Assembly (NCBI GenBank): GCA_001972305.1
Contig: BDDD01001487.1
Span: forward strand, 186,001-250,000
Length of the DNA: 64,000 nucleotides
Source: Cephalotus follicularis
Taxonomy: Eukaryota > Streptophyta > Magnoliopsida > Oxalidales > Cephalotaceae
Direction of reading: 5' to 3'
Positions 10,280 through 64,000 of this stretch are shown here, one piece after another (positions within the stretch are counted from its first letter, which is position 1; every line of letters begins with the position of its first letter). Position numbers and translations under genes: made by a program. The notes under the pieces are model-generated. The model saw only the letters and a program-made list of their open reading frames with translations, did no database searches and was not told the origin of the DNA.

Positions 10280-10291
10280 TGGTGTCAAAGC
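10280..10291 (+). other. Copia-B primer-binding site
   Basis: TGGTGTCAAAGC lies four bases after the LTR end. It is a variant of the initiator-Met complement TGGTATCAGAGC. Confidence 0.85.
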
Positions 10292-11158
10292 ATCCCACAT
10301 CATCGTTAGTTGAATTCATGCCTTGAATGATGAACTGATATAAGTTTTAATTAAAGGATGTGTTTTATAGTTAAACTTGATTTTCAAAGTGCCCTAGTGA
10401 TTTAGGTATGAAATTGGATATCATTGTGTTTATGTCCTGGGGATTTTGATTCAATATGTTTAGAACTTGCATAGTGTAGTTTGGATTGCCAAAATGGAAT
10501 GCCAAAGTCTAAACCATTTATTTATGCTATTTTACAAACTGTAGAAACTGTCCAGGGGACTTAAGCGTCGACACCTTTTGGGAAAGCGTCGACGCTTGTC
10601 TCACTGGTATGATGTTGCGTCGATGCCTTGGTATAGCGTCGACACTTATTTGAGTTTTATTAATTTTGCGCCTAAGACGTAAGCATCGACGCCTTCTGGG
10701 AAAGCATCGACAATTTAGTCAATTTAAAAAAAAATCTGTTTTTACAAAAATTGGATTTTTTTGCATTATGGTACTTAGAAAATAATGATGATTTAGTGGG
10801 AGTTTGACTAATTAACAATCCTCAAATTAAAATTTTGTAATTGGTTATCATTTATGGCATTTTGTTACTTTGTGTTTAATTATATTGGATATAATTTTAA
10901 GTCTTATGCACAATGGATGACCTAGAAGGACATTGACCTAGTTTATGGTTTTCTTGTGTGGATGGATTTATTTATTATCTTTAATGGTACGTAATAAGGT
11001 GCATGCGAGCACCATTTATTTTTTTCCTTTCTCATGTTATTTCTCCTTGTAATTTTAAATGTAATTTTTATTTTCAAAATGTAAAGTTCCTTTTGTAAAT
11101 GAAGATCTTGCAAGGAGAGATGGAGGAGAGGATAAATGGAGTACAAGACCTTTGAAGG

Positions 11159-11172
11159 CCATGTATGCATGG
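11159..11172 (+). other. Leader palindrome, copia-B
   Basis: CCATGTATGCATGG is self-complementary apart from one position that pairs as G-U in RNA. The homologous sites in copia-A and copia-C are perfect palindromes with different central bases. It sits 46 bases before the leader stem-loop. Confidence 0.7.
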
Positions 11173-11218
11173 TTATTGTTGTAATAGATAAATTTATTCT
11201 TTACACCTAGGAAGACCT

Positions 11219-11248
11219 AGTAATGACTTTGGGCTCAAGTCACTACTT
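11219..11248 (+). ncRNA. Leader stem-loop, copia-B (candidate RNA structure)
   Basis: AGTAATGACTT pairs with AAGTCACTACT (10 of 11 pairs) around the loop TGGGCTC. The loop core GGCTC is shared with copia-A and copia-C, while the stem sequence differs yet still pairs. Confidence 0.65.
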
Positions 11249-11993
11249 ATAATGTCTTTACCAATCCATTGATATATTTTAGAAATATGTCCAAGGCGCA
11301 TAAGATACACGTCATGCATGCTAAGACGTAATTAATTGAAATTGGCTAATGCAACCAATGAATTAATTAATGGCTCGATAATTAAAATGTGAGACCGCAA
11401 ATTCTCTCAACTTAATAATAAGTCTGAACGTAGGAACCCATGGAGTGGTTCCCCGTGACCTTCCACAATTTTCGTTGAGTAGTGTTCCAGGGTTATTGGT
11501 CTGTCATGGCCTAGCTGAGGCTAATAACTTTGGGATACTATGTCAACGTCAGTGTTGGGCACCGCAAAGGATGGCTATGTTGTAGCACTTGGACACGCCT
11601 ACTTGTGTGTGTTAAAACTAGTGCATTCCAATGAAAATTATGGGTGTTTGACTTATCGAGATTCTGATGGTTTGTCATGCCCTAGCTAAGGCCATATTGA
11701 ATCTAAGGCCAAATTTTATGATTGGATCTTGTATTGGATGCAAATTGGCAAGAAAGCCTACCCATTGGATATATTATGGTTTTTCATGTCTTAGCTGAGG
11801 CCATAATATGATTGCGATGGATTCCAATCCCCACTGGGAAGTTGGACTTCTCGAGTTTCATATGGGGGTATGGGATATGATTAGAATATTGGGAGGAACC
11901 ATAAGCACTAAAGACCAAGTGTTATGGTTGTCATATATTAAAATTGGAATAAATGCTAACTCAAGTTTATATTTCCTTATATAGGTTGCTAGA

Positions 11994-12885
11994 ATGGCTT
12001 TATCAAATGCAATGTCCCGTATACTTGAGACAAACAAACTTGAAGGGCCCAACTTCAATGATTGGCATCAAAACCTCAAAAACGTCCTTACGGCCAATAA
12101 AAATGGCCTATGTGATGACTGGGGGGCCTCCTTCACTGGGTGAAAATCCTATGCCCTAAGAGAGTGAGCGACTAGCCAAGTGTCTAGAGGATGACGAGTA
12201 GGCTAGATGTCTTGCCCTCCTTGGGATGACACATGAGCTTCAACATCAAAATGAGAAAATTGAGACCTTATCTACTATACTACTCCACCTTCAGGAGATG
12301 TATTGGGCTGAGTCTGGGACTCAAAGGTTCAATTTCTCACGCAAACTCTTCAAGGCGCAGATGAAAGAGGGAGCTTCAGTCCATGAGCATGGATTGAAGA
12401 TGATAGACATGATTGAGTAGCTGGCTCAATTAGGGTTTGTCATGGACCATGATCTGTATGTGGATCTTATTTTGACGTCCCTTCCTAGGTCATTCTCATA
12501 GTTCTTGGTGAATTTTCACATGAACAAGATAGAGGTGACTCTATCTGAGCTTATTGCCATGCTGAGGACGGTTAAGGCTGATTTTGACTCTGGGAAGTCA
12601 AAGACCCAGTCCCTGCTTCTTCCTTCTTCTTCTAGGTCTGCCCATGGAAAGGGCAGTGCCTCGTCTTCCTCTAAAGGGAAGGGCATTCTCATGCCTGTCA
12701 ACACAAAAGGCAAGGGTAAGAAGAAGCAGAAGAAGAAGAAGAAGAAGAAGAAGAAGAAGGGTAAGCTTGGAGCTAGTGGAAATGTTTCCAAAGATCGGAT
12801 GAAGAAGTTAGCTGCTGAAGGTGCTTGTTTCCAGTGCGGTAAGATCGGGCACTGGAAAAAGGATTGTCGTGTTGCTATTGCTGGA
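11994..12885 (+). pseudogene. gag: Copia-B gag, broken, with polylysine expansion
   Basis: The start ATG at 11994 gives MALSNAMSRILETNKLEGPNF, the typical N-terminus of copia gag (UBN2_2 type). A frameshift occurs near 12105-12125 and stops follow at about 12160, 12202, 12418 and 12499. The helical capsid part (HEHGLKMIDMIE, LYVDLILTSLPRSFS) remains readable. A basic linker carries a pure AAG run at about 12718-12762. The zinc knuckle CFQCGKIGHWKKDC near 12829-12870 is intact. The family product forms the particle; this copy cannot. Confidence 0.9.
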
Positions 12886-19242: not shown

Positions 19243-19255
19243 TGGTATCAGAGTC
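19243..19255 (+). other. Copia-A primer-binding site
   Basis: TGGTATCAGAGTC lies three bases after the LTR end. It matches the initiator-Met complement for 11 of 12 bases. Confidence 0.88.
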
Positions 19256-19810: not shown

Positions 19811-20404
19811 ACAGACACATACTAAGTGTTTTGGGCAGAAATTTAATACTCCTATATACGTAGTTCACTTATATAATGCAGTAAATTCTTGGAGAATAAA
19901 ATATATAGTTTGGAGCTAATATTTAAACTGAATTAATACTTGATTTAATTTATTGCTTGGACCAAATAATTAAATAGTTTAGAACTAATAGTAAGGGATG
20001 CTAGGTTTTCTATAATCTAGTGGGAGTTATAATTAATTCTTGGCTACTAATTAGATTGGATCGATTAGCCATCGAATATTAAAATTCTTTGTGTTTATTC
20101 AAATTTATATATTGGATATATTTATTTTGAATGTCATATGCATAATGGTAGGCTTCGGGACTTAACCGATCTTTTGGTATCTTTTGTGGATGGTTTAATT
20201 TGCTTTATTATTTTGTGCTTTATTTGGTCTGTAATAAGGTTGTCTGCGTGCACCAAAATTCCTAATCTCCTTATTCTCACTAGGATAGAATTCTCTTTTC
20301 CCTCATTTTGTATTCTTTTCTTTAATTCATTAGATGTAATCAAAGGAGGAGTGTCAAAGGAGCTTGAAGAGGGAGATCAAAGAAATTACAAGACCAAGTG
20401 AAGG

Positions 20405-20418
20405 CCATGTATACATGG
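20405..20418 (+). other. Leader palindrome, copia-A
   Basis: CCATGTATACATGG is a perfect 14-nt palindrome, 45 bases before the stem-loop, and is preceded by ACAAGACC...GAAGGCC as in copia-B and copia-C. Confidence 0.75.
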
Positions 20419-20463
20419 CACATTTGTAATAAAGTAGTTTTAAATAGTTCACCTAAAAGACCG

Positions 20464-20492
20464 AGTGATTGCATTGGCTCGTGTGATCACTT
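20464..20492 (+). ncRNA. Leader stem-loop, copia-A (candidate RNA structure)
   Basis: AGTGATTGCA pairs with TGTGATCACT (ten pairs, two of them G-U) around the loop TTGGCTCG. The loop is identical to that of copia-C. Confidence 0.7.
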
Positions 20493-21290
20493 ATGGTTTT
20501 AGTCCATAGCCTAGCCATTTTACTTTTATGTTGGACATAGGGTGCATAAGATGGATGGTCAAAAAAAGACAAGCATGCTCAAACATAAGTTATTTAAATT
20601 GGTTAAGATAACCAATAAATTTATTAATGGCTTGGTAATATAAAATTGGTAAGACCAAATACATCCAAAGTTGAAATAATAAGTCATAATGACAGGGACA
20701 CAAGTGAGTGACCCGGCATGGGCCTTCCTTGATTCTCGTTGAATGGCATGGATATATTGTAGACGGTTAACTACAGCTAAGGTCCACAATATGACCATTG
20801 CTATGTCAATTACAGTGCTGGGCAATGTAAGGAAATGGCTATGTTTTGGCACTTGGACATGTACACGTGTGGGTGTTTCAAAACGGGTATATTTCTTTGA
20901 GGATTGTGGGTAATGACTTATTCTGGCTCCAATGGTTTGTTAAGCTATAGCTGAGACAATATTGAGCTAGGAGGCCGAATCCATGATCGGATCTTACATA
21001 GCGAGGGTTGGACCCTACGCAGTGTAAATTGGAGAGCGAGCCTACCTATCTTGGGTATTGTGGTTTTTCATGCTACAGCTCAGTCCATGATATGCTAAGA
21101 TAGATTCCAATCCCCACTAGGAGGTTGAACTTCCCGAATTCCACATAGGGGTGTGGGATACGATTAGAATAGTGGGATGAACCATAAGCACTAAAGACCA
21201 AGTGTTACGGTAGTAACATAAAATTGGAATAATATGCTAATATCCTATTTTGTTTCCTTTTTAGGTTGCATAGATATATTTTCCTAACTT

Positions 21291-36460: not shown

Positions 36461-37009
36461 CAACCCTCATATCCGTATCCATGATATATGTGGCCTACAC
36501 TCATAATACATCATGATGGAAAGGAAGATCATAAGTGGGGTTATTATCCCATAAGTCTCAAACATAACAATCATAGCCATACTGTAACCATAACCGTAAC
36601 CATAACTGTATTTCCGTGTAAAGGATAGGGACCGTCCTTAAAGGACCACATAGGATCCACTCCGTCAAAACCGTTTTAAAACCATTTCCGTAACCGTTTC
36701 TGAAACCATTTCTGTTTCTTGGTCCCCATCGAAGTTGAAAAACAATGGAGAGGAAGACCAACTAGGATATCCGCGTTAGATGTCCCAATGGAGCTATCCT
36801 AACCATTCTTGAAAACTATTTATATAAAAACCTCTTTTTGTTGCAACTTTCTTCAAAGATTTACTTTGGAAATCAAAAGTACTGTTAAAAGAGGATTCCC
36901 ATAAGCTACAAGGCCTTAGGGAGGCTTCCTATGGAATCCAATTGAAGAGAAAACTATTTGGGATTGAAAAGAGATGAAAACCAGTATGGTTCAGTTGAAA
37001 CAGGGCACT

Positions 37010-37190
37010 AAGCGTTGACTGCTTCACCCTAAGCGTCGACGGTTTCGCGTACACGAAGCGTCAATAATTTTACAACACATAAAGTGTCGACGCTTTAACC
37101 AAAAGTGTCGACGACCTAGTTCAGAGAAGAACATCGACTTTTAATCTGTTCAAAGCGCCACCGCTTTCACCCAAAGCGTCGACGGTTTGA
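37010..37190 (-). repeat. GCGTCGACG palindrome cluster in Tekay-2 LTR, copy 1
   Basis: Eight GCGTCGACG-type words occur (AAGCGTCGACGG, AGTGTCGACGCTT and variants), about 500-700 bases downstream of the LTR TATA box on the minus strand. The duplicated cluster is at 39783-39990. Confidence 0.85.
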
Positions 37191-38108
37191 CAGTATCAGG
37201 CAGGTCACCGAATAGCTGAAAAATCCGTTTAAAATTCTATCCAAAGGTAGCTATATGTTCATAAGGTCGATAGCAAGTTAAAAACACCTTTAACTCTTCA
37301 AATCTGTATCCGTAATTTGTAAATCTAGAGAGAAAAAGGTTTAGGCCTATAAACCCAAAACTCAAAAATCACTCTCATGTTCCCATTTTAATCCATTTTA
37401 AACTATAATGAACACCCTAGTCCATCCATCTAGCATGTATATAGCTATCCATAACCATAAAACCATGCAAATCCATCCATATAAGGAGATCGAAGCATAA
37501 GTATAATTTACCTTAATTAGTTGAGAACGAAGAATAGGCTACTTGAATCTGTATTCTACTTGTCCCTTTAGGTTCTATATTCTGCTACGATTCCATTGAC
37601 TCCTTATTTGCTTGATTTCGCCCACTCTCACTCTAACTCACTCTCTCTCTATCTCTCTAAGAGGAAATGAGAAGTGAATTGAGAATGAACTGAACCTCTT
37701 ATATATAGGAATAGGCTCCTTAAGGCGAAAATCTCATAAACAGCGATCAGGTTCTACTGAACCTCCACTACCCATAAACAGGCATAAAAGAGAAAAATAG
37801 TATATATCTATATATACATCCCATACCATCCATCAGTACGATATTGTACGATACTGTATAAATACAAGCAAAATACATGCCAATCTGTACACATAAAATA
37901 TTTGGGGCTCACACTCAAAGCTTTTGCTCTCCTGAACCTCTCAATCTTTCCAGACTTCAAATGAACTCCCCTTCGAATTTTATTCACAAAAATCTCAGGT
38001 GTGCTGTTTCTTTCCTGTTTTTTTTTACAAATTTATCTAGGTGGCCCAAGGGTTTTCCTTGGCTTCTCATCTTATCTTCCTCTCTCTCTCCTCTTCACGA
38101 ATCTCCAG

Positions 38109-39410
38109 ATGGCTAGGGTCAAACAAACATCCAGACAAACCATTACCCCCACAAAAGTATGCCGCATGACGAGGGGGTAACTGTAGCCGAGGGCCCTCTT
38201 GGAATAGAGGGGGCTATGAATGCCGGCTCTGCGGGCACTCATGATGTCATTTCTACCAAGGCTAGGGCCCAAGTATTTAGGGCCCACTTTGATAGGAGTG
38301 TGCACCGCCCTGAAAAGGTGAAAGAGTTGTGCAAAAAGTACTGTTTCCCGAGGAGCATGGAGGTCTTTCTCCCCCGAGATCCCAAGGAGACCACAGAGAG
38401 CAAACCTGGTCTCTTTGTGGTATTTGAAGATGCGTTGTCGCATGGCCTATGACTCCCCATACCACCCTTTGCCATTGCAATGTTGAGGCACTTTCAAATT
38501 CACCCTTCGCTGTTTCAAGCTCAATCTTGGGCCTTCATAATAGGTTTCTTGGTGAAGTGCTTGGAAACAAGGGTGACAGCGACGGTGGGGCTCTTCAAGG
38601 AGTTTCACTCCCTTAATGCATCTTCTGGTAAGCGCGGATATTATATCAAGTCGCGCATTTGTCTGACCAAGAAGCTACTGGTGGACCCTACAAAGTCCGT
38701 CAAGGGGTGGAGGGGGAGGTACTTCCCTGTTAGGAACCTTCCTGGATTTACTCCTTGCCAATGGTGTGACTCGTTGGATATCCAACGTCTCAATCAGAGG
38801 ACAATTTTGTCTGTAGCGGAGAAGGAAAACCTAGCGAAGCTCTCTGCTCTAGAGTCAGAGGAAGTGAATTCTAACATCTTTGAGGTTCATTTGCGCCGTG
38901 CTGGCTGAGCATGTCCCCTGGTTGGCTATACGCCTTGGATGAGGGAGAGGAGATCCCAGTGGGGTTAAAGAGAGAGGTGGTTCATGATAGCAGAGAAGAA
39001 CCCGTGACCTCACCCATTACCAAGGGGGAAAGCTGTATTAAGCCTTCCTCACCTCTTCTGTATCCAATGTGTTCATTTTTTAGTTCGACCATTATTTTAG
39101 GCTAGTTTCTTGTGGTTCTCTGCATCGATGGCTTCTTGGAGATATACAGTTGATGTCTTGAAAGCTGTAGAGATAGGGGTGATTCCAAGGATGTGAGGTA
39201 GAGAGCCTTGAGGGTATCGGCCAAGGCGGTAGAGAAGAAGAGAGAGAAAGAGGCCGTTGATGCTGCTGCTACTGAAGAGGCCACCAGGGTAACCTTTGCC
39301 CGAGGCAAACACACTGGGGATGAGCAGCTAGCTCCACCCAAAAAACAGAAAAAGAGAAAAGGTGAAGAGAGCTCTGCTCGGGGTAAGACTAATTTGTCCC
39401 CCACAGCAAG
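38109..39410 (+). pseudogene. Antisense accessory ORF, copy 1, 5' part (broken)
   Basis: The H3-tail-like leader starts at 38109 (MARVKQTSRQTITPTK, stop after 23 codons) and the main frame follows one base out of step at 38159. Relative to copy 2 it has a TGA near 38451 (GCCTATGACTCC against GCCTACGACTCC) and a one-base loss near 38905 in the segment RRAG. The central part carries the putative gypsy-type transposon domain (PF04195-like: HPSLFQAQSWAFIIGFLVKC). It stops at the duplication boundary at 39447 and has no 3' part. Confidence 0.85.
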
Positions 39411-40899
39411 TTCCGAGGTCCCGGTTCACCTTGGTGAGCCTCGGAATCGTTTTAAAACCATTTCCGTAACCGTTTCTGAAACCATTTCCGTTTCTTGGTC
39501 CCCATCGAAGTTGAAAAGCAATGGAGAGGAAGACCAACTAGGATATCCGCGTTAGATGTCCCAATGGAGCTATCCTAACCATTCTTGAAAACCATTTATA
39601 TAAAAACCTCTTTTTGTTGCAACTTTCTTCAAAGATTTACTTTGGAAATCAAAAGTATTGTTAAAAGAGGATTCCCATAAGCTACAAGGTCTTAGGGAGG
39701 CTTCCTATGGAATCCAATTGAAGAGAAAACCATTTGGGATTGAAAAGAGATGAAAACCAGTGTGGTTCAGTTGAAACAGGGCACTAAGCGTTGACTGCTT
39801 CACCCTAAGCGTAAATAGTTAGCGCCATAAGCGTCGACGGTTTCGCATACACCAAGCGTAAATAATTTTACAACACATAAAGTGTCGACGCTTTAACCAA
39901 AAGCGTCGACGGCCTAGTTCAGAGAAGAACATTGACTTTTAATCTGTTCAAAGCACCACCGCTTTCATCCAAAGCGTCGACGGTTTGACAGTATCAGGCA
40001 GGTCATCGAATAGCTGAAAAATCCGTTTAAAATTCTATCCAAAGGTAGCTATATGCTCCTAAGGTCGATACCAAGTTAAAAGCACCTTTAACTCTTCAAA
40101 TCTGTATCCATAATCTGTAAATCTAGAGAGAAAAAGGTTTAGGCCTATAAACCCAAAACTCAAAAATCACTCTCATGTTCCCGTTTTAAACTGTAATGAA
40201 CACCTTAGTCCATCCATCTAGCATGTATATAGCTATCCATAACCATAAAACCATGCAAATCCATCCATATAAGGAGATCTAAGCATAAGTATAATTTACC
40301 TTAATTAGTTGAGAACGAAGAATAGGGTGCTTGAATCTGTATTCTGCTTGTCCCTTCAGGTTCTATATTCTGCTACGATTCCAATGACTCCTTGTTTGCT
40401 TGATTTCGCCCACTCTCTCTCTAACTCACTCTCTCTCTATCTCTCTAAGAGGAAATGAGAAGTGAATTGAGAATGAATTGAACCTCTTATATATAGGAAT
40501 AAGCTCCTTAAGGCGAAAATCTCATAAACAGCGATCAGGTTCTACTGAACCTCCACTACCCATAAACAGGCATAAAAGAGAAAAATAGTATATATATATA
40601 CATCCCATGCCATCCATCAGTACGATATTGTACGATACTGTATAAATACAAGCAAAATACATGCCAATCCGTACACATAAAATATTTGGGGCTCACACTC
40701 AAAGCTTTTGCTCTCCTGAACCTCTCAATCTTTCCAGACTTCAAATGAACTCCCCTTCGAATTTTCTTCACAAAAATCTCAGGTGTGCTGTTTCTTTTCT
40801 ATTTCTTTTACAAATTTGTCTAGGTGGCCCAAGGGTTTTCCTTGGCTTCTCATCTTCTATTCCTCTCTCTCTCTCTCTCTCCTCTTCACGAATCTCCAG

Positions 40900-40971
40900 A
40901 TGGCTAGGATCAAACAAATAGCTAGACAAACCATTACCCCCACAAAAGTATGCCGCATGACGAGGGGGTGA
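40900..40971 (+). CDS. H3-tail-like leader peptide of the accessory ORF
   Basis: The ATG at 40900 is in good context (CCAGATGGCTA) after a CT-rich leader. It encodes MARIKQIARQTITPTKVCRM and ends after 23 codons. Positions 1-8 after Met match the histone H3 tail pattern A-R-x-K-Q-x-A-R; copy 1 at 38109 has A-R-V-K-Q-T-S-R. The frame is one base out of step with the main ORF that starts at 40950. A one-base loss in the A run at 40944-40947 would explain the break, which is shared by both copies. Whether it was ever translated as the N-terminus is inferred. Confidence 0.6.
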   Translation: MARIKQIARQTITPTKVCRMTRG

Positions 40972-41897
40972 CTGTAGCCGAGGGCCCTCTTGGCATAGAG
41001 GGGGCTATGAACGCCGGCTATGCGGGCACTCATGATGTCATTTCTACCAAGGCTAGGGCCCAAGTTTTTAGGACCCACTTTGATAGGAGTGTGCACTGCC
41101 CTGAAAAGGTGACAGAGTTGTGCAAAAAGTACTGCTTCCCGAGGAGCATGGAGGTCTTTCTCCCCCGAGATCCCAAGGAGACCACGGAGAGCAAACCTGG
41201 TCTCTTTGTGGTATTTGAAGATGCACTGTCGTATGGCCTACGACTCCCCATACCACCCTTTGCCATTGCAATTTTGAGGCACTTTCAAATTCACCCTTCG
41301 CTGTTTCAAGCTCAATCTTGGGCCTTCATCATAGGTTTCTTGGTGAAGTGCTTGGAAACAGGGGTGACTGCGACGGTGGGGCTCTTCAAGGAGTTTCACT
41401 CCCTTAATGCATCTTCTGGCAAGCGCGGATATTATATCAAGTCGCGCATTTGTCTTGCCAAGAAGCTACTGGTGGACCCTACAAAGTCCGTCAAGGGGTG
41501 GAGGGGGAGGTACTTCCTTATTAGGAACCTTCCTGGATTTACTCATTGCCAATGGTGTGACTCGTTGGATACCCAACGTCTCAATCAGAGGATAATTTTG
41601 TCTGTAGAGGAGAAGGCAAACCTGGCGAAGCTCTCTGCTCTAGAGTCAGAGGAAGTGAATTCTAACATCTTTGAGGTTCATTTGCGCCGTGCTGGGCTGA
41701 GCATGTCCCCTGGTCGGCTATACGCCTTGGATGACGGAGAGGAGATCCCAGTGGGGTTAGAGAGAGAGGTGGTTCATGATATCAGAGAAGAACCCATGAC
41801 CTCGCCCATTACCAAGGGGGAAAGCTGTATTAAGCCTTCCTCACCTCTTCTGTATCCAATGTGTTCATTTTTTAGTTCGACCATTATTTTTGGCTAG
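40950..41897 (+). CDS. Accessory ORF of Tat element, PF04195-like domain (copy 2)
   Basis: A 315-codon open frame. It contains KPGLFVVFEDALSYGLRLP, PPFAIAILRHFQIHPS and LFQAQSWAFIIGFLVKCLE, the pattern of the plant "putative gypsy type transposon" domain. A conserved Trp/Cys part follows (VKGWRGRYF, HCQWCDSLDTQRLNQR). Tat-group gypsy elements are known to carry extra ORFs between pol and the 3' LTR, some of them antisense; the function is unknown. Here it is on the plus strand and the Tat pol is on the minus strand. The last 30 codons or so (SSPLLYPMCSFFSSTIIFG) look non-coding, so splicing is likely. Confidence 0.82.
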   Translation: MPHDEGVTVAEGPLGIEGAMNAGYAGTHDVISTKARAQVFRTHFDRSVHCPEKVTELCKKYCFPRSMEVFLPRDPKETTESKPGLFVVFEDALSYGLRLPIPPFAIAILRHFQIHPSLFQAQSWAFIIGFLVKCLETGVTATVGLFKEFHSLNASSGKRGYYIKSRICLAKKLLVDPTKSVKGWRGRYFLIRNLPGFTHCQWCDSLDTQRLNQRIILSVEEKANLAKLSALESEEVNSNIFEVHLRRAGLSMSPGRLYALDDGEEIPVGLEREVVHDIREEPMTSPITKGESCIKPSSPLLYPMCSFFSSTIIFG

Positions 41898-41989
41898 TTT
41901 GTTGTGGTTCTCTATTGCGATGGCTTCTTGGAGATCTACAGTTGATGTCTTGAGAGCTGCAGAGATAGGGGTGATGCCAAGGATGTGAG

Positions 41990-43218
41990 GTAGAGAGCCT
42001 TGAGGGTATCGGCCAAGGCGGTAGAGAAAAAGAGAGAGAAAGAGGCCATTGATGCTGCTGTTGCTGAGGAGGCCGCCAGGGTAACCTTTGCCCGAGGCAA
42101 ACACACTAGGGATGAGCAGCCAGCTCCACCCAAAAAACAGAAGAAGAGAAGAAGTGAAGAGATCTCTGCTCGGGGTCAGACTGATTTGCCCCCCCCGTAG
42201 CAAGTTCCGAGGTCCCGATTCGCCTTGGTGAGCCTCGGAATGTAGACCAGTTCGTGGAGGAGCTTGAGGCACTGGATGACTCTGGCGTAGACCTGAATAC
42301 TCCAGGGGCACCTTTTAAGCTAAGCAGGTTGTGCATCTTCCCTGCTGAACTAAATGCAAGGAAGGATTGAAGCATTAGCCAGCACTGGAATCACTGTCTT
42401 CAGAGCAACATTAGGGTATGAACTTCCTCCTCTTTCTCTCTTTAGGTATGCTATTTGTTCTTCCTCTGATTTTGGTTTTTCTTTGTTTGGCTCTGAACGA
42501 CACCCATATAATAATAGAGAACTCCAAGGCCAGCCACGAACTCATTAATCAACTTTGGGAGAAGATCACAGAGCTCAAGCATGCGGCTAGCTCAGCCCAA
42601 TCTCAACTGGTAGAGGTTCTCAAGGCCCAAGAGTCCGTTATGGAGGAGAAGAGGCAGGATTTGGAATCTCTGGACAAGGAGACGAGGGAGAAAGATCTTG
42701 TTGTTCGCTATAATATAAAGCTTCAGGATCGGCTGAAGGCTATGGAAGATAGGGTCTCTAAGATCTAGGAGACGGAGACTGCTCGGACTCAGTCGGCAGT
42801 TGTCAAGGCCCTTGCGAAGTTCAAAGCATCGGCAGAGTTTCAAGGTGCTTTGACTAAGGCCGTGGATGACTTCAGGGCTTCCAAATAATTTGAAGAGGAA
42901 GTCCTTAAGGAATCTAACATACTCTACCGCAGGGGCTTCTACACCTGCAGCAACTTGGTCACTCGTCATCCGGATGCTCCTCTGGATTCTATTGTTTGTC
43001 GTCCGTCAGTGGCTGAGTTTGACTTCTTTCTCGAAGGGGTTGATGCAGAGGAAGAGAAATCTCTCCTTGATTTCGAGGAACAGGAGCGTCTCGCTCGGGC
43101 GATTGTCCCTTACACTAGTCCTGCTGCGGATCCTGACTTTGTCCCTTCTCTCGAGGACCCTCAAGTGCCTACTTCTCCTCCAGATGTACACAATATCCCT
43201 TTAGGGGATGATGATTAG
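41990..43218 (+). pseudogene. Accessory ORF, C-terminal coiled-coil part
   Basis: Downstream frames continue the same product. A Lys/Glu-rich part (VSAKAVEKKREKEAIDAAVA, PPKKQKKRRSEE) is at 42000-42200. ELEALDDSGVDLNTPGAPF comes next. A heptad-rich stretch at 42520-42768 (LINQLWEKITELKHA, VMEEKRQDLESLDKETREK) is followed by TAG, then FKASAEFQGALTKAVDDFR. The last frame (42955-43218) ends acidic, with PLGDDD. Frames change at about 41895, 42200, 42368, 42768 and 42887; some may be introns, others are decay. AATAAA follows at 43294. Confidence 0.72.
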
Positions 43219-48175: not shown

Positions 48176-48690
48176 TGTGTGTGTGTTATGGAAGCTTGGA
48201 TCTATTGTCCCTTTTGTCATAAAGTACTTATGCTTTTTGACTTTTCTCATTAAATGCTCAAAGTCCACTCTTTGGCTTATTGAGCACACCTCTCTCACTC
48301 ACCAACTCTTCTTAAGTTGGTAAGTCCCGTGTGTCAGCCCTCTTGGCGTCAACTCCATGTGTCTCATCCTATCTTGGCGTCAACGCCAATGATAAGATGA
48401 AACAAGCGCGTAGTCTCTTCCCGTATAAGCATCGACGCATGCTCTTCTTGTCGTCAATGCGTAAGTCACTGGAATAACATGGCGTCAGCGTATGCTCCCC
48501 ACGACGTTAATGCCCAGCGACTCTAGCTACATATAGCGTCAAAGCATGCTCTTCATGGCATCAACGCGTGAGTCCCTATTTTAGATGGTATCGACACATG
48601 CTCTCTATAGCCTCGACGCCCAAAGGCTTAAGCTAGACATGGCATCAATGCATGTTCTCCATGGCATTGACACCTAAGACAAGAATGAGA
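48020..48690 (-). repeat. GGCGTCAACGC / GCGTCGACG array in copia-C LTR
   Basis: About 18 words of the type GGCGTCRACGC or decayed forms (GGCATCAACGC, GCATCGACGC) are spread over 670 bases, often followed by ATGCTCTCCATGG. Equivalent arrays are at 56083-56712 and 62578-62915. Confidence 0.82.
48091..48187. repeat. (GA)n(TG)n compound microsatellite
   Basis: About 23 GA units are followed by about 24 TG units. The 5' LTR copy (56151-56221) and the right-edge copy (62369-62410, GA only) are shorter, showing length change among LTR copies. Confidence 0.95.
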
Positions 48691-53221: not shown

Positions 53222-53980
53222 TCAGATCTTATCAAGGATGGCTCCCCAAACAGCTAGCCCCGTTGACACCGCTGCTTTTCTTCCTTTCTTCTTCTTTCCT
53301 TTAGGTTTCATGGGCGCCTTGCCCTTGGACTTTGATCCTCTTGATCCGCCCCCTCTTGGAGCTGTCTGATAAGATGTAGAAGGAAGAAACATCACATTCG
53401 ACTTGGACCTCCCATGGTCCATGTCGGCTTCGATCGTATGAAGCATTTCCACAAGTTCAGGTAGATTAATATCCACCTTGTTCATGTAGAAATTTGTGAT
53501 GAACTGGGAGTATGATCGAGGGAGAGATGAAAGCACCAGGTCAATGTAGAAATCATTATCCATGGTGAGATCTAGCCGAGCCAACTGCTCAATAAGATCA
53601 ATCATCTTCAATTCATGAGCATGGACTGAAGATCCCTTGGCCATCTTCGTACAGAAGAGCTGACAGGATAAGTTAAACAGATCGGTCCTCGATCGAGATC
53701 CATACAACTCATGAAGACGAAGAAGTATGTCTCCTAGGGTATCAAGTTTCTCGTGTTGTCTTTGCAATTCCAGGACCGTACCTGAAATCGCTAGGCAACG
53801 AGCTTGCTTGTCCTCATCTAACCATTTGGCCCTCTTGGCCTTTTGCTCTTCCGACGGGTTGGCTCCCAGTTTGGGAGCGCTCTCAGTCATGACATGAGAA
53901 AGTTTCATGCTCGTGAGTGCTAGGCCCAGGTTGCGTTGCCAATCCAAGAAATTTGGACCTGTGAGCTTGTTTGTATCCAT
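53222..53980 (-). pseudogene. gag: Copia-C gag, longest intact gag frame
   Basis: The first in-frame ATG is the Met of MDTNKLTGPNFLDWQRN (about 53980). Upstream frame extends to about 54037 without ATG where copia-A and copia-B have their start, so the original start was probably lost. The capsid part (ARCLAISGTVLELQRQHEKL, LFNLSCQLFCTKMAKGSS, HELKMIDLIEQLARLDLTMD, YIDLVLSSLPRSYSQFITNF) is unbroken for some 250 codons. The basic C-terminus (GSKSKGKAPMKPKGKKKKGRK) leads into a frame break just before the zinc knuckle. Confidence 0.92.
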
Positions 53981-54816
53981 AACATGTGAAAGTGTTGTGC
54001 CAATTGATATATCATAGAATATGGTGATAACTAGCAACCTATAAAAGAGGAAACAAAATAGAGTAAAATTAGCAAATCATTCCATTTGTATTATTACCAT
54101 AATACTTGGTCTTTTGTAATTATGGCTCCTTCCACTATTCTAATCGTATCCCACACCCCCGTGTGGAATTCGGGAAGCCTATCATTTCCTAGCGGGGATC
54201 GGAATCTATCCAGCATAATATAGTCCCGACTTTTGCCGTGCAAACCATAATACTTGAATAGGTAGGTATGTATACCAATTTACATTAGGACCTCTCGCCC
54301 AAAATGTAAGATCCGATACAAAATTTGGCCTCTCGACCCATATGATCTCAACTTCCGCTGTGCAAACCATATGATCCCGATATAAGTCAAACCCATAATC
54401 CTCAAAGAAATTAACTTGTTTTGAAACATCCACACGTATCGATGTCCTGATGCCAAAACAAAGTCATTTCCTTCCAGTGTACCTTACACTGAAATTGAAC
54501 AGAAATGGTCATACGGGGGACCTCTGATTTTACAATACCATCCCCAATATGTCCACACCATTCAACGATGATTATGGAAGGTCAATGATAGGGCAGCCAT
54601 ATGCCCCACCGCTTATGGACTTATTATTTGGAAGTTTGAGGGATGTGGTCTCATCAATTTTTTTTATCAAAATTACCAAAGCTGTTTTAGATTAATTTTA
54701 ATCTTCCAATCCATTTGGACGGCTGAACATGCTTTGACGTGTTTGAATTGTTTGCAAAGGAAAAAAAAATCCATCTCATGTACCCTAAAAGTGGCCTGAC
54801 TTGGGACTTAAGCTAT

Positions 54817-54846
54817 AAGTAATCACGCGAGCCAACGTGATCACTT
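54817..54846 (-). ncRNA. Leader stem-loop, copia-C (candidate RNA structure)
   Basis: On the minus strand AAGTGATCACG pairs with CGTGATTACTT (11 pairs, one G-U) around the loop TTGGCTCG, identical to the copia-A loop. Confidence 0.72.
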
Positions 54847-54893
54847 GGTCTTCCTAGGTGTACAAATTTAATTTAACTCTATTACAATTGCTA

Positions 54894-54907
54894 CCATGCA
54901 TGCATGG
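54894..54907 (-). other. Leader palindrome, copia-C
   Basis: CCATGCATGCATGG is a perfect 14-nt palindrome, 47 bases from the stem-loop. Confidence 0.75.
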
Positions 54908-55382
54908 CCTTAACTGGTCTTGTAATCTTCTTGATCTTTTCTTTATTCTCCATTGATCTCGTTTCTTCAACTTACAGCCATATGTACACAATTAAAGAAA
55001 AAGAAATACAATTGAGGGAGAAGATAATTCCACTCTATGAATAAAAGAACAAGAATAACTACGGCGCATGCGGACAACCTTATTACAGGGCGATTGAATT
55101 CCATGAATGTAATAAAGCAATTAAATCATTCACACAAAGAAAACACAAAGCTAGGCCGAGTCCCAAACCTACCAGCATGCATAAGAAATTCAAAAATATA
55201 ACCAAGATATAATTGAATTAACATGTAACAATCTGGCGTTCAATGGTTCATCGATTTCATTAGTGTGACCAACAAAGATGCAACTCCCACTAAACGTAGG
55301 GCTACAAAAATTTTGCCAAGGCACATATGCAATCTCCAATCCACTAAACATCAAATTGAGGTCTAATTGAAGTTAATTAGGT

Positions 55383-55397
55383 GGCTCTGACACCGCT
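55383..55397 (-). other. Copia-C primer-binding site
   Basis: The minus strand reads AGCGGTGTCAGAGCC immediately after the LTR end, a variant of TGGTATCAGAGC. Confidence 0.82.
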
Positions 55398-56193: not shown

Positions 56194-58011
56194 GTGTGTG
56201 TGTGTGTATGTGTGTGTGTGTTATGGAAGCTTGGACCTCTTGTCCCTTTTGTCATAAAGTATTTATACTTTTTGACTTTTCTCATTAAATTCTCAAAGCC
56301 CACTCTTTGGCTTATTGAGCACACCTCTCTCACTCATCAACTCCACTTAAGTTGGTAAGTCCCGTGTGTCAGCCCTCTTGGAGTCAACGCCATGTGTCTC
56401 ATCCTATCTTGGCATCAACGCCAACGATAAGATGAAGCAGGCGCATAGTCGCTTCCTGTATAAGTGTTGATGCATGCTCTTCATGTCTTCAATGCGTAAG
56501 TCACTGGAATAACATGGCGTCAACGCATGCTCTCCACGACGTTAACGCCCAGTGACTCTAGCTACATATAGCATCAAAGCATGATCTTCATGGCATAAAT
56601 GAGTAAGTCCCTATTTTAAATGGTGTCGACGCATGCTCTCCATAGCGTCGATGCCCAGAGGCTTAAGCTAGACATGGCGTCAACGCATGCTTTCCATGGC
56701 GTTGATGCCTAAGACAAGGATGAGACATTCTCTTCTATTTTTCAAACCCTCTACTTGGAATATTTCATCGTGGCATTGCATGGACCTAAATCCAGCAAAT
56801 GAAATACTCACTCGCAAAGCAACATCTTCCCTGATTTGTCCATTCACTAAATGACATGTGTCCATCACATGTCAACCTGTTCAAAACAAGGCAGGGCCCT
56901 AAAGCCTATCGATCTCCGATATAAAGATAAATTCCCAGAACATCCTGATTTCTGGTACGACCATTCTAATAGTTACCAACTATCAAAACAGCCTCGGTAT
57001 ATGCGTCACCCCCTGGATCCGTGTATTACCATGTCTATCTTTCATAGTCCGAATAGCCAATCACTTTATCCAGTCATTGGTATATGTGTCATGTTTCCCT
57101 CATCATACTTGGCTCCGATCACAACCTAGTGTTTGGATGAATGTCACCCCTAGTATTGCTCCGATAACTATGAATATATGATTACACTGAGACTATCGGC
57201 AGACCTCCCATGGAAAGCTCTTGTTTCTAGTCCACCTATGCCTGATCAGGACTTTTAGGTCTACAACGTATATAGATAAATAGAGCCAGTCACCCTCAGC
57301 CCGGGTGTGACGATCCCTTATTGCGCACTCACCCATACATCTCAATGCAGCTCCCACAAGACCCAAAGATAACCCTTTTGCCAGCACGTGGCTAGTGTTG
57401 GGGAAGGCAAAAATCAATGTCAAGCAGTCACTACACAATGCATGCTAGCCGCTCAGGTCAAAGGAGACAACGCAGGCTATAGACCTACTAGTCACCATAG
57501 ACTATACACTACCGAGACCATAGGAATCCTATTGACATTGGGTATTGACTATCCAAATAGGTTTCCTATTGGTGGGTTTATCCAGTGTCATGCTCTCTAG
57601 CACACACCTCATATTAAGTTTTAGGGATAAACCCAAATGGCTACGAGATAACCATCCTCTACTGCTAACCCAGGAGCAAGCATAATGTGACAAGTCTTCG
57701 CGGTTCATCAATGGCCCAAAGAAAGTGAACCTATGGCTTGGAACGTTTTGTCACAGGGAGTAAGGATCCCATTCTCATAGCCTCCTTGGCACGAGATCCA
57801 ACCATTTGGTGTGACAGGGCACTACATGACATACAGTTAATTATAAATAATTATTCTATTCCTTTTGGTTGGTTTGGATGAGCTATATAGACTTGCTAAT
57901 ATAAAAATATGCACATGAAATATGAATGGAATTCAGAATGGTATAAATCAAGAGTGTATATATACAAATAACGAGCCATATCGTGGCACATAGGGACACC
58001 CTAACCTAACA
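55398..58011 (-). repeat. Copia-C 5' LTR (2614 bp)
   Basis: The plus-strand start is TGTTGGGAACGGGCTCAGG and the end ACACCCTAACCTAACA. It is collinear with 47350-49982. It holds the microsatellite 56151-56221, the palindrome array 56083-56712 and the U3 block 57701-57743. Confidence 0.94.
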
Positions 58012-61680: not shown

Positions 61681-62364
61681 TTTTATAATCGTCTGGATCC
61701 GTGTCAAAAGTGGAGTCCGTGAAACCTTCCAGTTTCAGGTCGCCCTCTCTATAAACCAAGAATTCGTCCTTAGTCCTTCTCAAGTACTTAAGGATATTAT
61801 TGAGTACCTCCCAGTGTCCCACACCGCGGTTAGACTGATATCTTCTAGCCATTCCCAATGCATGAGCAACATCAAGCCTAGTACAAATCATCGTATACAT
61901 GATGGATCCTATTGATGATGCATAAGGGATCCTACTCATGCGATCTATCCCCTTAAGTGTGTTGGGACACATCTTCTTGGAGAGTCGAACTCCAGAACTT
62001 ATGACAAAAGTCCTTTCTTTGAGTTTTTCATGCTGAATCATTTAAGCACTTTATCAATGTACTAGCTTAGGGATAAACCCAGCAACCTGCGTGATCTATT
62101 TCTATAGATCTTTTTTCCCAATATGTAGGATGCCTCTCCCAAGTCTTTCATGAAAAAGTTCTTGGATAACCTTATTTTGACGAACTATAACATATCTACA
62201 TCATTCCAAATAAGTAGTATGTCATCCACATACAGTACCAAGAATATGACACTGCTCCCACTAAACTTCTCATATACAAAAGGCTCATCATTGTTCTGGA
62301 TGAAGTCAAAGGACTTGATTGCCTCATCAAAATGAACATTCCAGCTATATGATGCTTGCTTCAA

Positions 62365-62366
<2 letters not shown>
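61681..62366 (-). pseudogene. Copia-D pol fragment (RT C-terminus and RNase H start)
   Basis: On the minus strand from 62366: KQASYSWNVHFDEAIKSFDF, FLVLYVDDILLIWNDVDML (YVDD intact), MKDLGEASYILGKKIYRNRS and LGLSLS followed by TAG. After a frame change come MSRIPYASSIGSIMYTMICT, ARRYQSN and LKLEGFTDSTFDTDPDDYK, where the CACTA end begins. It is a different copy from copia-A, -B and -C. Its 5' side is lost at the GA repeat at 62367. Confidence 0.9.
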
Positions 62367-62414
<48 letters not shown>

Positions 62415-64000
62415 AAGTGTGTTATGGAAGCTTGGATCTATTGTCCCTTTTGTCATAAAGTATTTATGCTTTTTGACTTTTCTCATTAAATGCTCAAAGT
62501 CCACTCTTTGGCTTATTGAGCACACCTCTCTCACTCACCAACTCTTCTTGAGTTGGTAAGTCCTGTGTGTCAGCCCTCTTGGCGTCAACTCCATGTGTCT
62601 CATCCTATCTTGGCGTCAACGCCAATGATAGGATGAAACAAGCGCGTAGTCTCTTCCCGTATAAGCATCGACGCATGCTCTTCTTGTCATCAATGCGTAA
62701 GTCACTGGAATAACATGGCGTCAACGTATGCTCTCCACGACGTTAATGCCCAGTGACACTAGCTACATATAGCGTCAACGCATGCTCTTCATGGCATCAA
62801 CGTGTGAGTCCCTGTTTTAGATGGTATCGACACATGCTCTCCATAGCTTCGACGCCCAGATGCTTAAGCTAGACATGGCGCCAATGCATGCTCTCCATGG
62901 CGTTGACGCCTAAGACAAGAATGAGACATTATCTTCTAGTTTTCAAACCCTCTGCTTGGATTATTTCATCATGGCATTGCATGGACCTAAATCCAGCAAA
63001 TGAAATACTCACTCGCAAAGCAACATCTTCCTTGATGTTGTCCTTTCACTAAATGACATGTGTCCATCACATGTCAACCTGTTCAAAGACAGGTAGGACC
63101 CTAAAGCCTATCGATCTCCAATATGAAGATAAATTCCTAAAACATCCCGATTTCTGGTACGACCATTCTAATAGTCACCGACTATCAAAACAGCCCAGGT
63201 GTGAGCGCCAGTCACCACCCGGATTCGTGTATTACCACGTCTATTTTTCATAGTTCGAATAGTCAGTCACTTTATCTATTCATCGGCATATGTGTCATGT
63301 TTCCCTTGTCATACTTGGCTCCGATCACAGCCTAGGCTTTGGATGAATGTCACCTTTAGTATTGTACGATAACTATGAATCTATGAATGCACTGAGACTA
63401 GCAGACCTCCCATGGAAACCTCTCATTCCCAGTCCACCTATGCCTGATCTGGACTTTTAAGTCTACAATGTATATAGATAAATAAAGGTGGTCATCCTCA
63501 GCCCAGGTGTGACGATCCCCTATTGCCCACTCGCCCATATATCTCAATGCAGCTCCCACAAGACCCAAAGACAACACTTTTGCCAGCACATGGCTAGTGC
63601 TGGGGAAGGAGAAAATCAAAGTCAAGCAGTCACTACACAATGCATACCAGCTGCTCAGGTTTAAGGAGACAACTCAGGCCATAGACCTACTAGTCAGCAT
63701 AGACTATACACTACCGAGACCATAGGAATCCTATTGACATTGGGTATTGACTATCCAAATAGGTTTACTATTGGTGGGTCTGTTCAGTGTCATGCTCTCT
63801 AGCACACACCTCACATTAAGATTTAGGGATAAACCCAAATAGTTACGAGATAACCATTCTCCACTGCTAACCCAGGAGCAAGCATAATGTGACAAGTCTT
63901 CACGATTCATCAATGACCCAAAGAAAGTGAACCTATGACTTGGAACATTTTGTCACAGGGAGTAAGGATCCCATTCCCATAGCCTCCTTGGCACAAGATC
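62367..64000 (-). repeat. Copia-C-type LTR fragment at the right edge
   Basis: It is collinear with about 48087-49750 of the copia-C 3' LTR, at about 97 percent identity over the 300 bases compared. It starts inside the GA microsatellite (62369-62410), lacking the first 740 or so bases of the plus-strand LTR, and runs off the window. It includes the palindrome array (62578-62915) and U3 block (63902-63945). Confidence 0.92.

What the first reader, a model, noticed from the sequence alone, without database searches (positions are those of the whole stretch)
11159..11248. Conserved palindrome plus stem-loop in three copia leaders, with compensatory changes
Copia-A (20405-20418), copia-B (11159-11172) and copia-C (54894-54907, minus strand) each have a 14-nt palindrome: CCATGTATACATGG, CCATGTATGCATGG, CCATGCATGCATGG. 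In A and C both central bases changed together; B keeps a G-U pair. Between 45 and 47 bases later each has a stem-loop (A 20464-20492, B 11219-11248, C 54817-54846). The loop core GGCTC is constant, yet the stem bases differ: GTGATCACG in C, TAATGACTT in B. The elements are otherwise strongly diverged in the leader, so pairing rather than sequence seems conserved. Retroviral leaders use palindromes for genome dimerisation next to packaging hairpins, so this looks like a copia dimerisation/packaging element.
Basis: partly seen in the sequence, partly recalled or inferred. Interest (0 to 1): 0.75.

Follow-up and report, generated by a model that had tools for sequence, protein, structure and literature searches.

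The report
Folded RNA leader in plant retrotransposons
Three copies of a jumping element in a plant genome, and dozens of relatives elsewhere in that genome, keep the same folded RNA shape ahead of their first gene although the letters of one flagged hairpin have changed in matching pairs, which points to a signal that the element's RNA needs in order to be copied.

Summary
The palindromes and stem-loops exist where stated. The window's own genome (G000, 1.58 Gb) gave 96 copies of the interval, the window's three included.

The stem-loop holds: 94.6% of pair cells form and 8 of 11 pairs carry two-sided changes. On internal tree branches 79% of changes keep pairing (null mean 54%, maximum 71%); at tips 45% (null 36%).

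The compensatory change claimed inside the palindrome is not supported. The usual form is CCATGTATGCATGG; A and C each differ from it by one base. A subfamily reads CCATG[G/A]ATGCATGG. None of 47 palindrome-unbiased copies is a perfect palindrome; 38 keep the five-pair hairpin arms.

The pair is a small part of a conserved leader of about 1.25 kb reaching to gag. In a fold predicted from the window's three copies, 28 of 29 helices pair above slid controls in 80 other leader rows. Internal double-change events number 45, against 3-10 in simulations.

Best reading: part of a cis-acting RNA domain, probably for packaging and/or dimerisation. That function is inferred, not shown. No Rfam match.

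The parts
11140..11185 (+). Copia-B hairpin H1: basal stem (6 of 7 pairs possible in B) with the palindrome hairpin at its top
   Evidence: mapped; 3-copy fold; alone, B's H1 folds no better than shuffles (z 0.21)
11159..11172 (+). Copia-B near-palindrome CCATGTATGCATGG, read as a 5-6 pair hairpin with loop TATG
11218..11248 (+). Copia-B stem-loop H2 (flagged), loop core GGCTC
20385..20430 (+). Copia-A hairpin H1
   Evidence: alone, A folds with another lower stem but the same palindrome hairpin (z -3.12)
20405..20418 (+). Copia-A palindrome CCATGTATACATGG
20463..20492 (+). Copia-A stem-loop H2
54881..54926 (-). Copia-C hairpin H1
   Evidence: alone z -1.35
54894..54907 (-). Copia-C palindrome CCATGCATGCATGG
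54817..54846 (-). Copia-C stem-loop H2
10280..10291 (+). Copia-B primer binding site (TGGTGTCAAAGC; many other copies have TGGTATCAGAGC)
19243..19254 (+). Copia-A primer binding site (TGGTATCAGAGT)
55384..55395 (-). Copia-C primer binding site (CGGTGTCAGAGC)
10796..12008 (+). Copia-B conserved leader, alignable with A and C up to the gag start
20020..21288 (+). Copia-A conserved leader
54012..55290 (-). Copia-C conserved leader
11474..11547 (+). Copia-B long hairpin (25 pairs, model 720-793); A 20738-20810, C 54494-54566
11565..11633 (+). Copia-B long hairpin (model 811-882); A 20828-20899, C 54403-54474
11762..11820 (+). Copia-B long hairpin (model 1025-1082); A 21046-21103, C 54206-54261
11830..11893 (+). 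Copia-B multi-helix domain just before gag (model 1092-1155); A 21113-21176, C 54131-54196
11994..11996 (+). Copia-B likely gag start codon; a pyrimidine tract plus AG lies just upstream (11983-11984)
   Evidence: letters printed; start inferred by alignment with C
53222..54037 (-). Copia-C open frame matching the copia gag family (Retrotran_gag_2)

Best explanation
The flagged pair (H1, a hairpin carrying the near-palindrome; H2, the stem-loop with a GGCTC loop) is one section of a cis-acting RNA domain of about 1.25 kb in the leader of the genomic RNA of a high-copy plant Ty1/copia family. Supported by tests: H2 pairing was kept, with a sense-strand bias, while the lineages were active, and the leader as a whole has a conserved fold. 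Inferred, not tested: the fold marks full-length RNA for Gag binding and packaging, and H1 can open and pair with the same stem of a second RNA molecule. Loop cores that mostly stay while stem letters turn over (GGCTC in H2, ATG in H1) suggest protein or RNA contact points.
For: Position: after a TGGTATCAGAGC-like primer site (404-1467 nt upstream where one was found with at most 1 mismatch) and before gag. H2: 94.6% of cells paired in 96 copies, 8 of 11 pairs with two-sided changes; 98.1% in a MAFFT alignment of 14 copies; 52 of 96 copies form all 11 pairs and 29 form 10; without alignment, 80 of 96 fold with z below -2 against mononucleotide shuffles. Two H2 pairs rank first and second of 5886 column pairs, E about 0.02 among the 24 structure pairs. 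Branch test: internal changes keep pairing 79% (null mean 54%, maximum 71%), double events 4.5 (null mean 0.91, maximum 4); tips 45% against 36%. Whole leader: of 29 helices predicted from A, B and C alone, 28 pair more often than their slid controls in 80 other leader rows. Consensus energy is -289.9 sense, -218.2 antisense, -73 to -111 in 8 simulations; internal changes keep pairing 309 of 475 sense, 95 of 241 antisense, and in 38-45% of simulated changes; double events 45, 29 and 3-10. Precedents in copia elements: Ty1 hairpins needed for dimerisation and packaging (PMC5454406, abstract); conserved dimerisation and packaging signals stated for BARE2 (PMC3735527, passages).
Against: No assay of any kind. 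The self-complementary centre is not kept: 0 of 47 unbiased copies perfect, 13 with G-U allowed, and the predicted dimer gain falls from about -14 kcal/mol to -7.5 and -3.8 in the GATG and AATG forms. The basal stem of H1 shows no pairing preference on branches (41% against 38%), and alone B's H1 folds no better than shuffles. No H2 pair survives correction over all 5886 column pairs (E 5.6 and 6.2), and no H2 pair reached E<0.05 in the 58-copy leader set. The number of pairs with two-sided changes in the whole three-helix structure is not unusual against shuffles (10 against 8.1; 70 of 500 reach it). Per-helix branch tests on a fold made from the same data are leaky (0-7 'significant' helices in simulations, 7 observed, 4 antisense). 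Sampling: the search for B-type copies not chosen by the palindrome did not complete, so the B-type copies besides the window's were chosen by the palindrome; 49 of the 96 rows come from that sample or the window. The alignment was fitted to the structure.
Confidence: 0.5

Rival explanations
1. The structured leader serves translation or export of the mRNA: it lets ribosomes reach gag past dozens of upstream AUGs (internal entry or shunting), or recruits export factors, and H1/H2 are parts of that device.
For: 36-62 ATGs between primer site and gag in A, B and C; longest ATG frames there 54-91 aa. Well-kept helices lie directly before gag. A structured leader of a plant pararetrovirus is reported to recruit export factors (PMC12786077, passage). 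CCATGTATGCATGG has an ATG in each of three frames (read from the sequence).
Against: H1/H2 lie about 750-890 nt before gag. No Rfam family, IRES families included, matches. No translation or export data.
Confidence: 0.22
2. The leader, or its end, is an intron. Splicing to an acceptor just before gag makes gag mRNA and leaves the leader signals only in full-length RNA.
For: Pyrimidine tract plus AG directly upstream of gag in A, B and C; a strict AG|GTTGC-like motif in 22 of 63 copies, preceded by 83% pyrimidine against 49% background, with looser forms among the other copies printed.
Against: Only 22 of 63 copies meet the strict motif; no strong conserved donor found in the leader (the LTR was not examined); by eye, the deletions in L006 and L056 are not at GT-AG.
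Confidence: 0.13
3. The palindrome and inverted repeat are DNA-level sites (transcription factor or cruciform) and the RNA fold is incidental.
For: An inverted repeat in DNA also keeps two-sided changes; the antisense strand too has 29 double events, above simulations.
Against: Internal-branch changes favour G-U over A-C on the sense strand (H2 14:5; tips 19:17). In 22 of 22 leaders the sense letters are TATGCA or TATACA, never the C-A form CATACA. The antisense fold is weaker.
Confidence: 0.05
4. Shared ancestry alone: a few subfamily founders fixed different letters and later copies inherit them.
For: Events are few, and few pairs reach significance under the tree-based null (2 of 24; 4 of 277).
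Against: The branch test counts events, not copies, and exceeds its null; 45 double events against 3-10 in simulations on the same tree.
Confidence: 0.1

Closest known systems
Ty1 5' domain (pseudoknot, SL1a/SL3a kissing loops, PAL1/PAL2) of yeast
   Same: Copia superfamily; hairpins and palindromes near the 5' end of genomic RNA; palindromes that can form intramolecular stem-loops or intermolecular pairs (PMC9503155 passages; PMC5454406 abstract)
   Different: Ty1's structure lies in the first 326 nt of the RNA; here H1 lies 404-1467 nt after the primer site in a leader of about 1.25 kb. Sequences were not compared.
BARE1/BARE2 dimerisation and packaging signals of barley
   Same: Plant Ty1/copia with an untranslated leader; the paper states conserved dimerisation and packaging signals in BARE2 (PMC3735527 passages)
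   Different: The BARE signals were not compared by sequence here; the passages seen give no covariation evidence for them
Retroviral dimer initiation sites (HIV-1 SL1, MoMLV palindromes)
   Same: A hairpin with a self-complementary stretch in the leader, near other hairpins (PMC516450 passages)
   Different: The HIV-1 palindrome is described as remarkably conserved (same passages); here the centre varies to non-self-complementary forms in whole subfamilies
Conserved non-coding motifs of plant Sireviruses
   Same: Plant copia elements with palindromic non-coding motifs and a Met-tRNA primer site (PMC2829016 passages)
   Different: Those palindromes are reported upstream of the LTR TATA box or near ENV and read as transcriptional sites; the passages seen describe no leader RNA fold

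Membership tests
Ty1/copia retrotransposon | copia-type gag and pol, LTRs, tRNA primer site | tested here: met
   Retrotran_gag_2 (C) and RVT_2 (B) Pfam matches; repeated LTR-like blocks and primer sites
Retrovirus-type dimer initiation site | self-complementary sequence kept by selection | tested here: not met
   0 of 47 unbiased copies perfect, 13 with G-U; GATG/AATG subfamilies; arms kept in 38 of 47
Retrovirus-type dimer initiation site | RNA dimerises in vitro through the palindrome | not testable with these tools
   only predicted duplex energies
Packaging signal (psi) | conserved structured RNA between primer site and gag | tested here: met
Packaging signal (psi) | needed for RNA uptake into particles, bound by Gag | not testable with these tools
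   no assay
Known Rfam family | covariance-model match | tested here: not met
   0 matches at gathering score in the window; 0 with E up to 1 in B leader 10700-12050
Leader intron | conserved donor and acceptor | tested here: inconclusive
   strict acceptor-like motif 22 of 63, no strong donor in the leader
Kissing interaction of the H2 loop with the primer site | loop letters follow the letters after the primer site | tested here: not met
   mean run 4.13 against 4.04 permuted, 24% of permutations reach it, 45 copies

The most novel reading that the evidence does not exclude
The leader is a new large structured RNA of plant copia elements: over 1 kb with 27 predicted helices of at least 5 pairs, kept by selection in several divergent subfamilies, and with repeated hairpin loops that change in concert (model 931 and 1055 carry the same letter TT, AA or CC in 47 of 58 leaders). 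Those loops would be an array of sites for one protein, probably Gag. As far as I recall it would be among the longest covariation-supported cis-acting RNAs of a retrotransposon, and it would let packaging in plant elements be dissected.
Probability: 0.3. Interest if true: 0.7.

Novelty: new variant of a known kind. Interest (0 to 1): 0.5.

Why it matters
To my knowledge little is known of how plant LTR retrotransposons choose their genomic RNA for packaging; the passages seen of a 2025 review on plants discuss packaging without naming a cis signal (PMC12786077). A leader fold with covariation support gives defined helices to probe and delete. The copy set also shows a useful control for old repeats: pairing is kept better on internal branches of the copy tree than at the tips.

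Tried and rejected
Viral contigs: the gag query found no relative; the pattern found 2 contigs whose best match to the island is the 18-nt pattern itself. H2 loop pairing with the primer site: complementary letters exist (GAGC/GCTC, 7 nt in 5 of 45 copies), but permutation gives no support. Compensatory change in the palindrome centre: rejected. Deletion derivatives (L009, L015, L017, L061, L062, L074) as packaged mini-elements: they were found by the palindrome itself and break at different points, and the search for the L017 junction did not complete, so nothing is claimed. Gag-shortened copies (matches ending near residue 119): 7 of 9 E-type ones looked at still show pol downstream; not pursued. 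Literature searches for a leader fold in plant LTR elements; none of the listings showed one, which is no proof of absence. (host name) added nothing.

Rows dropped before the 96-copy count: 15 of 112 loci were not given to it: L001 and L002 (viral contigs), L027 (same place as window A), L037, L041, L042, L045, L053, L054, L055, L084 (no island hit), and L043, L058, L063, L079 (partial). Of the 98 sources given, L011, L012, L095, L098 and L102 had no match. Of the 40 places, 20 were fetched.

Full report
What was checked. The letters and positions in the finding are right. The three copia elements are A (primer site 19243, gag start about 21291), B (10280, 11994) and C on the minus strand (55395, gag frame 54037-53222). 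No frame of polyprotein length is open in the window (longest copia frames 218-271 aa), so all three look like dead copies.

More copies. The assembly that holds the window, G000 (1,577,397,061 bases), has 6196 places with CCATGYATRCATGG and 9 with the reversed control pattern. Of 24 such loci looked at, 22 match the leader model, 16 of them over nearly its whole length and 6 in part. Because that sample was chosen by the palindrome, a second one was taken with a block near gag about 680 nt downstream: the 40 best places for A's block and 20 of the 40 for C's block. The same search for B's block did not complete. A covariance model from 14 copies then gave 96 matches from 98 sources; 15 loci were left out as listed in Tried and rejected. 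The structure in the model is the three-copy RNAalifold structure trimmed by eye.

The stem-loop (H2). In 96 copies 94.6% of cells pair, and 8 of 11 pairs show two-sided changes. The two best column pairs of all 5886 are H2 pairs; under a tree-preserving null their E is about 0.02 among the 24 structure pairs but 5.6 and 6.2 over all column pairs. Counting events on the tree, internal-branch changes keep pairing in 79% (null mean 54%, maximum 71%), tip changes in 45% (null 36%). Changes from a Watson-Crick pair go to G-U 14 times and to A-C 5 times on internal branches, 19 and 17 at the tips. So pairing was kept on the RNA sense strand while lineages were active and is kept less well after insertion. 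Pairing is 94.0% in the 47 palindrome-unbiased copies and 95.1% in the other 49; folding without alignment gives z below -2 in 80 of 96. The alignment was fitted to the structure, which favours it; the MAFFT alignment of 14 copies gives 98.1%, and an HMM alignment not fitted to structure gives 84% in 80 leader rows.

The palindrome. Its arms CCATG and CATGG (CGTGG in a C-type group, a G-U change) are mostly kept, its centre is not: TATG 62, GATG 17, AATG 10, TATA 2, CATG 1, other 3 of 95. In the unbiased 47 none is a perfect 14-nt palindrome, 13 are with G-U allowed, and 38 keep five-pair arms. The apical hairpin has one two-sided cell in all, so covariation cannot speak for it. In all 22 leaders the sense letters are TATGCA or TATACA, never CATACA.

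The leader. RNAalifold on 21 diverse of 58 near-complete leaders gives 277 pairs with a span limit of 160 nt. A fold made only from A, B and C was tested on 80 other leader rows (some partial, a few from one locus): H2 84% paired, model 720-793 87% with 9 pairs doubly changed, 811-882 86%, 1034-1072 95%, 1099-1113 99%; the best slid control of each helix lies between 41% and 70%. One of the 29 helices (629-634) does no better than its slid control and several are weak, so not every predicted helix is real. On the same tree, simulated leaders give energies of -73 to -111 and 3-10 double events, the real sense strand -289.9 and 45, the antisense -218.2 and 29. Per-helix tests are leaky: up to 7 helices pass in a simulation, 7 in the data. 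Four single pairs, none in H2, are significant within the structure, and the strongest pair of the leader (931-1055) is not a base pair but the same place in two repeats.

Mechanism. Most likely a cis-acting domain of genomic RNA for packaging and/or dimerisation (0.5). Translation or export (0.22) and leader splicing (0.13) are live rivals, because the leader holds 36-62 ATGs before gag and ends in an acceptor-like tract.

Known or new. The kind is known from Ty1, BARE and retroviruses. No Rfam family matches, and the literature searches named in Tried and rejected showed no such leader in plant elements. I file it as a new variant of a known kind.

Noticed in passing
A 20934 and 21062; B 11498, 11669 and 11778 (leader model about 741, 917, 1041): A repeated hairpin-loop motif near GGTTTGTCATGC...AGCTGAGG (none found in C with up to 3 mismatches); model positions 931 and 1055, equivalent places in two repeats, carry the same letter in 47 of 58 leaders (TT 20, AA 19, CC 8), the strongest covariation of the leader.
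   Followed up: partly
A 21263-21264, B 11983-11984, C 54039-54040: Pyrimidine tract plus AG directly before the gag start, splice-acceptor-like.
   Followed up: partly
leader of A, about 20390, 20456 and 21194; also B and C: The motif AAGACC(N)AGTG or near forms of it recur three times in the leader, at H1, at H2 and near gag.
   Followed up: no
L035, L047, L051, L052, L056, L085, L086, L087, L090 and others: Gag matches that stop near residue 119; in 7 of these 9 pol sequence follows after a shorter gap than in A, a shared shortened gag.
   Followed up: partly
L009, L015, L017, L061, L062, L074: B-type copies in which the leader (model 763-1026) runs into LTR or pol sequence at different points.
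   Followed up: partly
window 10543-10730 and 48479-48678, 56514-56713, 62715-62914: GCGTCGACGC-like palindromic repeats in B's leader and GCGTCAACGC-like repeats in the C-type LTRs.
   Followed up: no
61682-64000: A further C-type element: an LTR piece next to pol, with the leader missing between them.
   Followed up: no
36669-42241: Tandem duplication of about 2.8 kb, 94% identical, with a Transposase_28 match.
   Followed up: no
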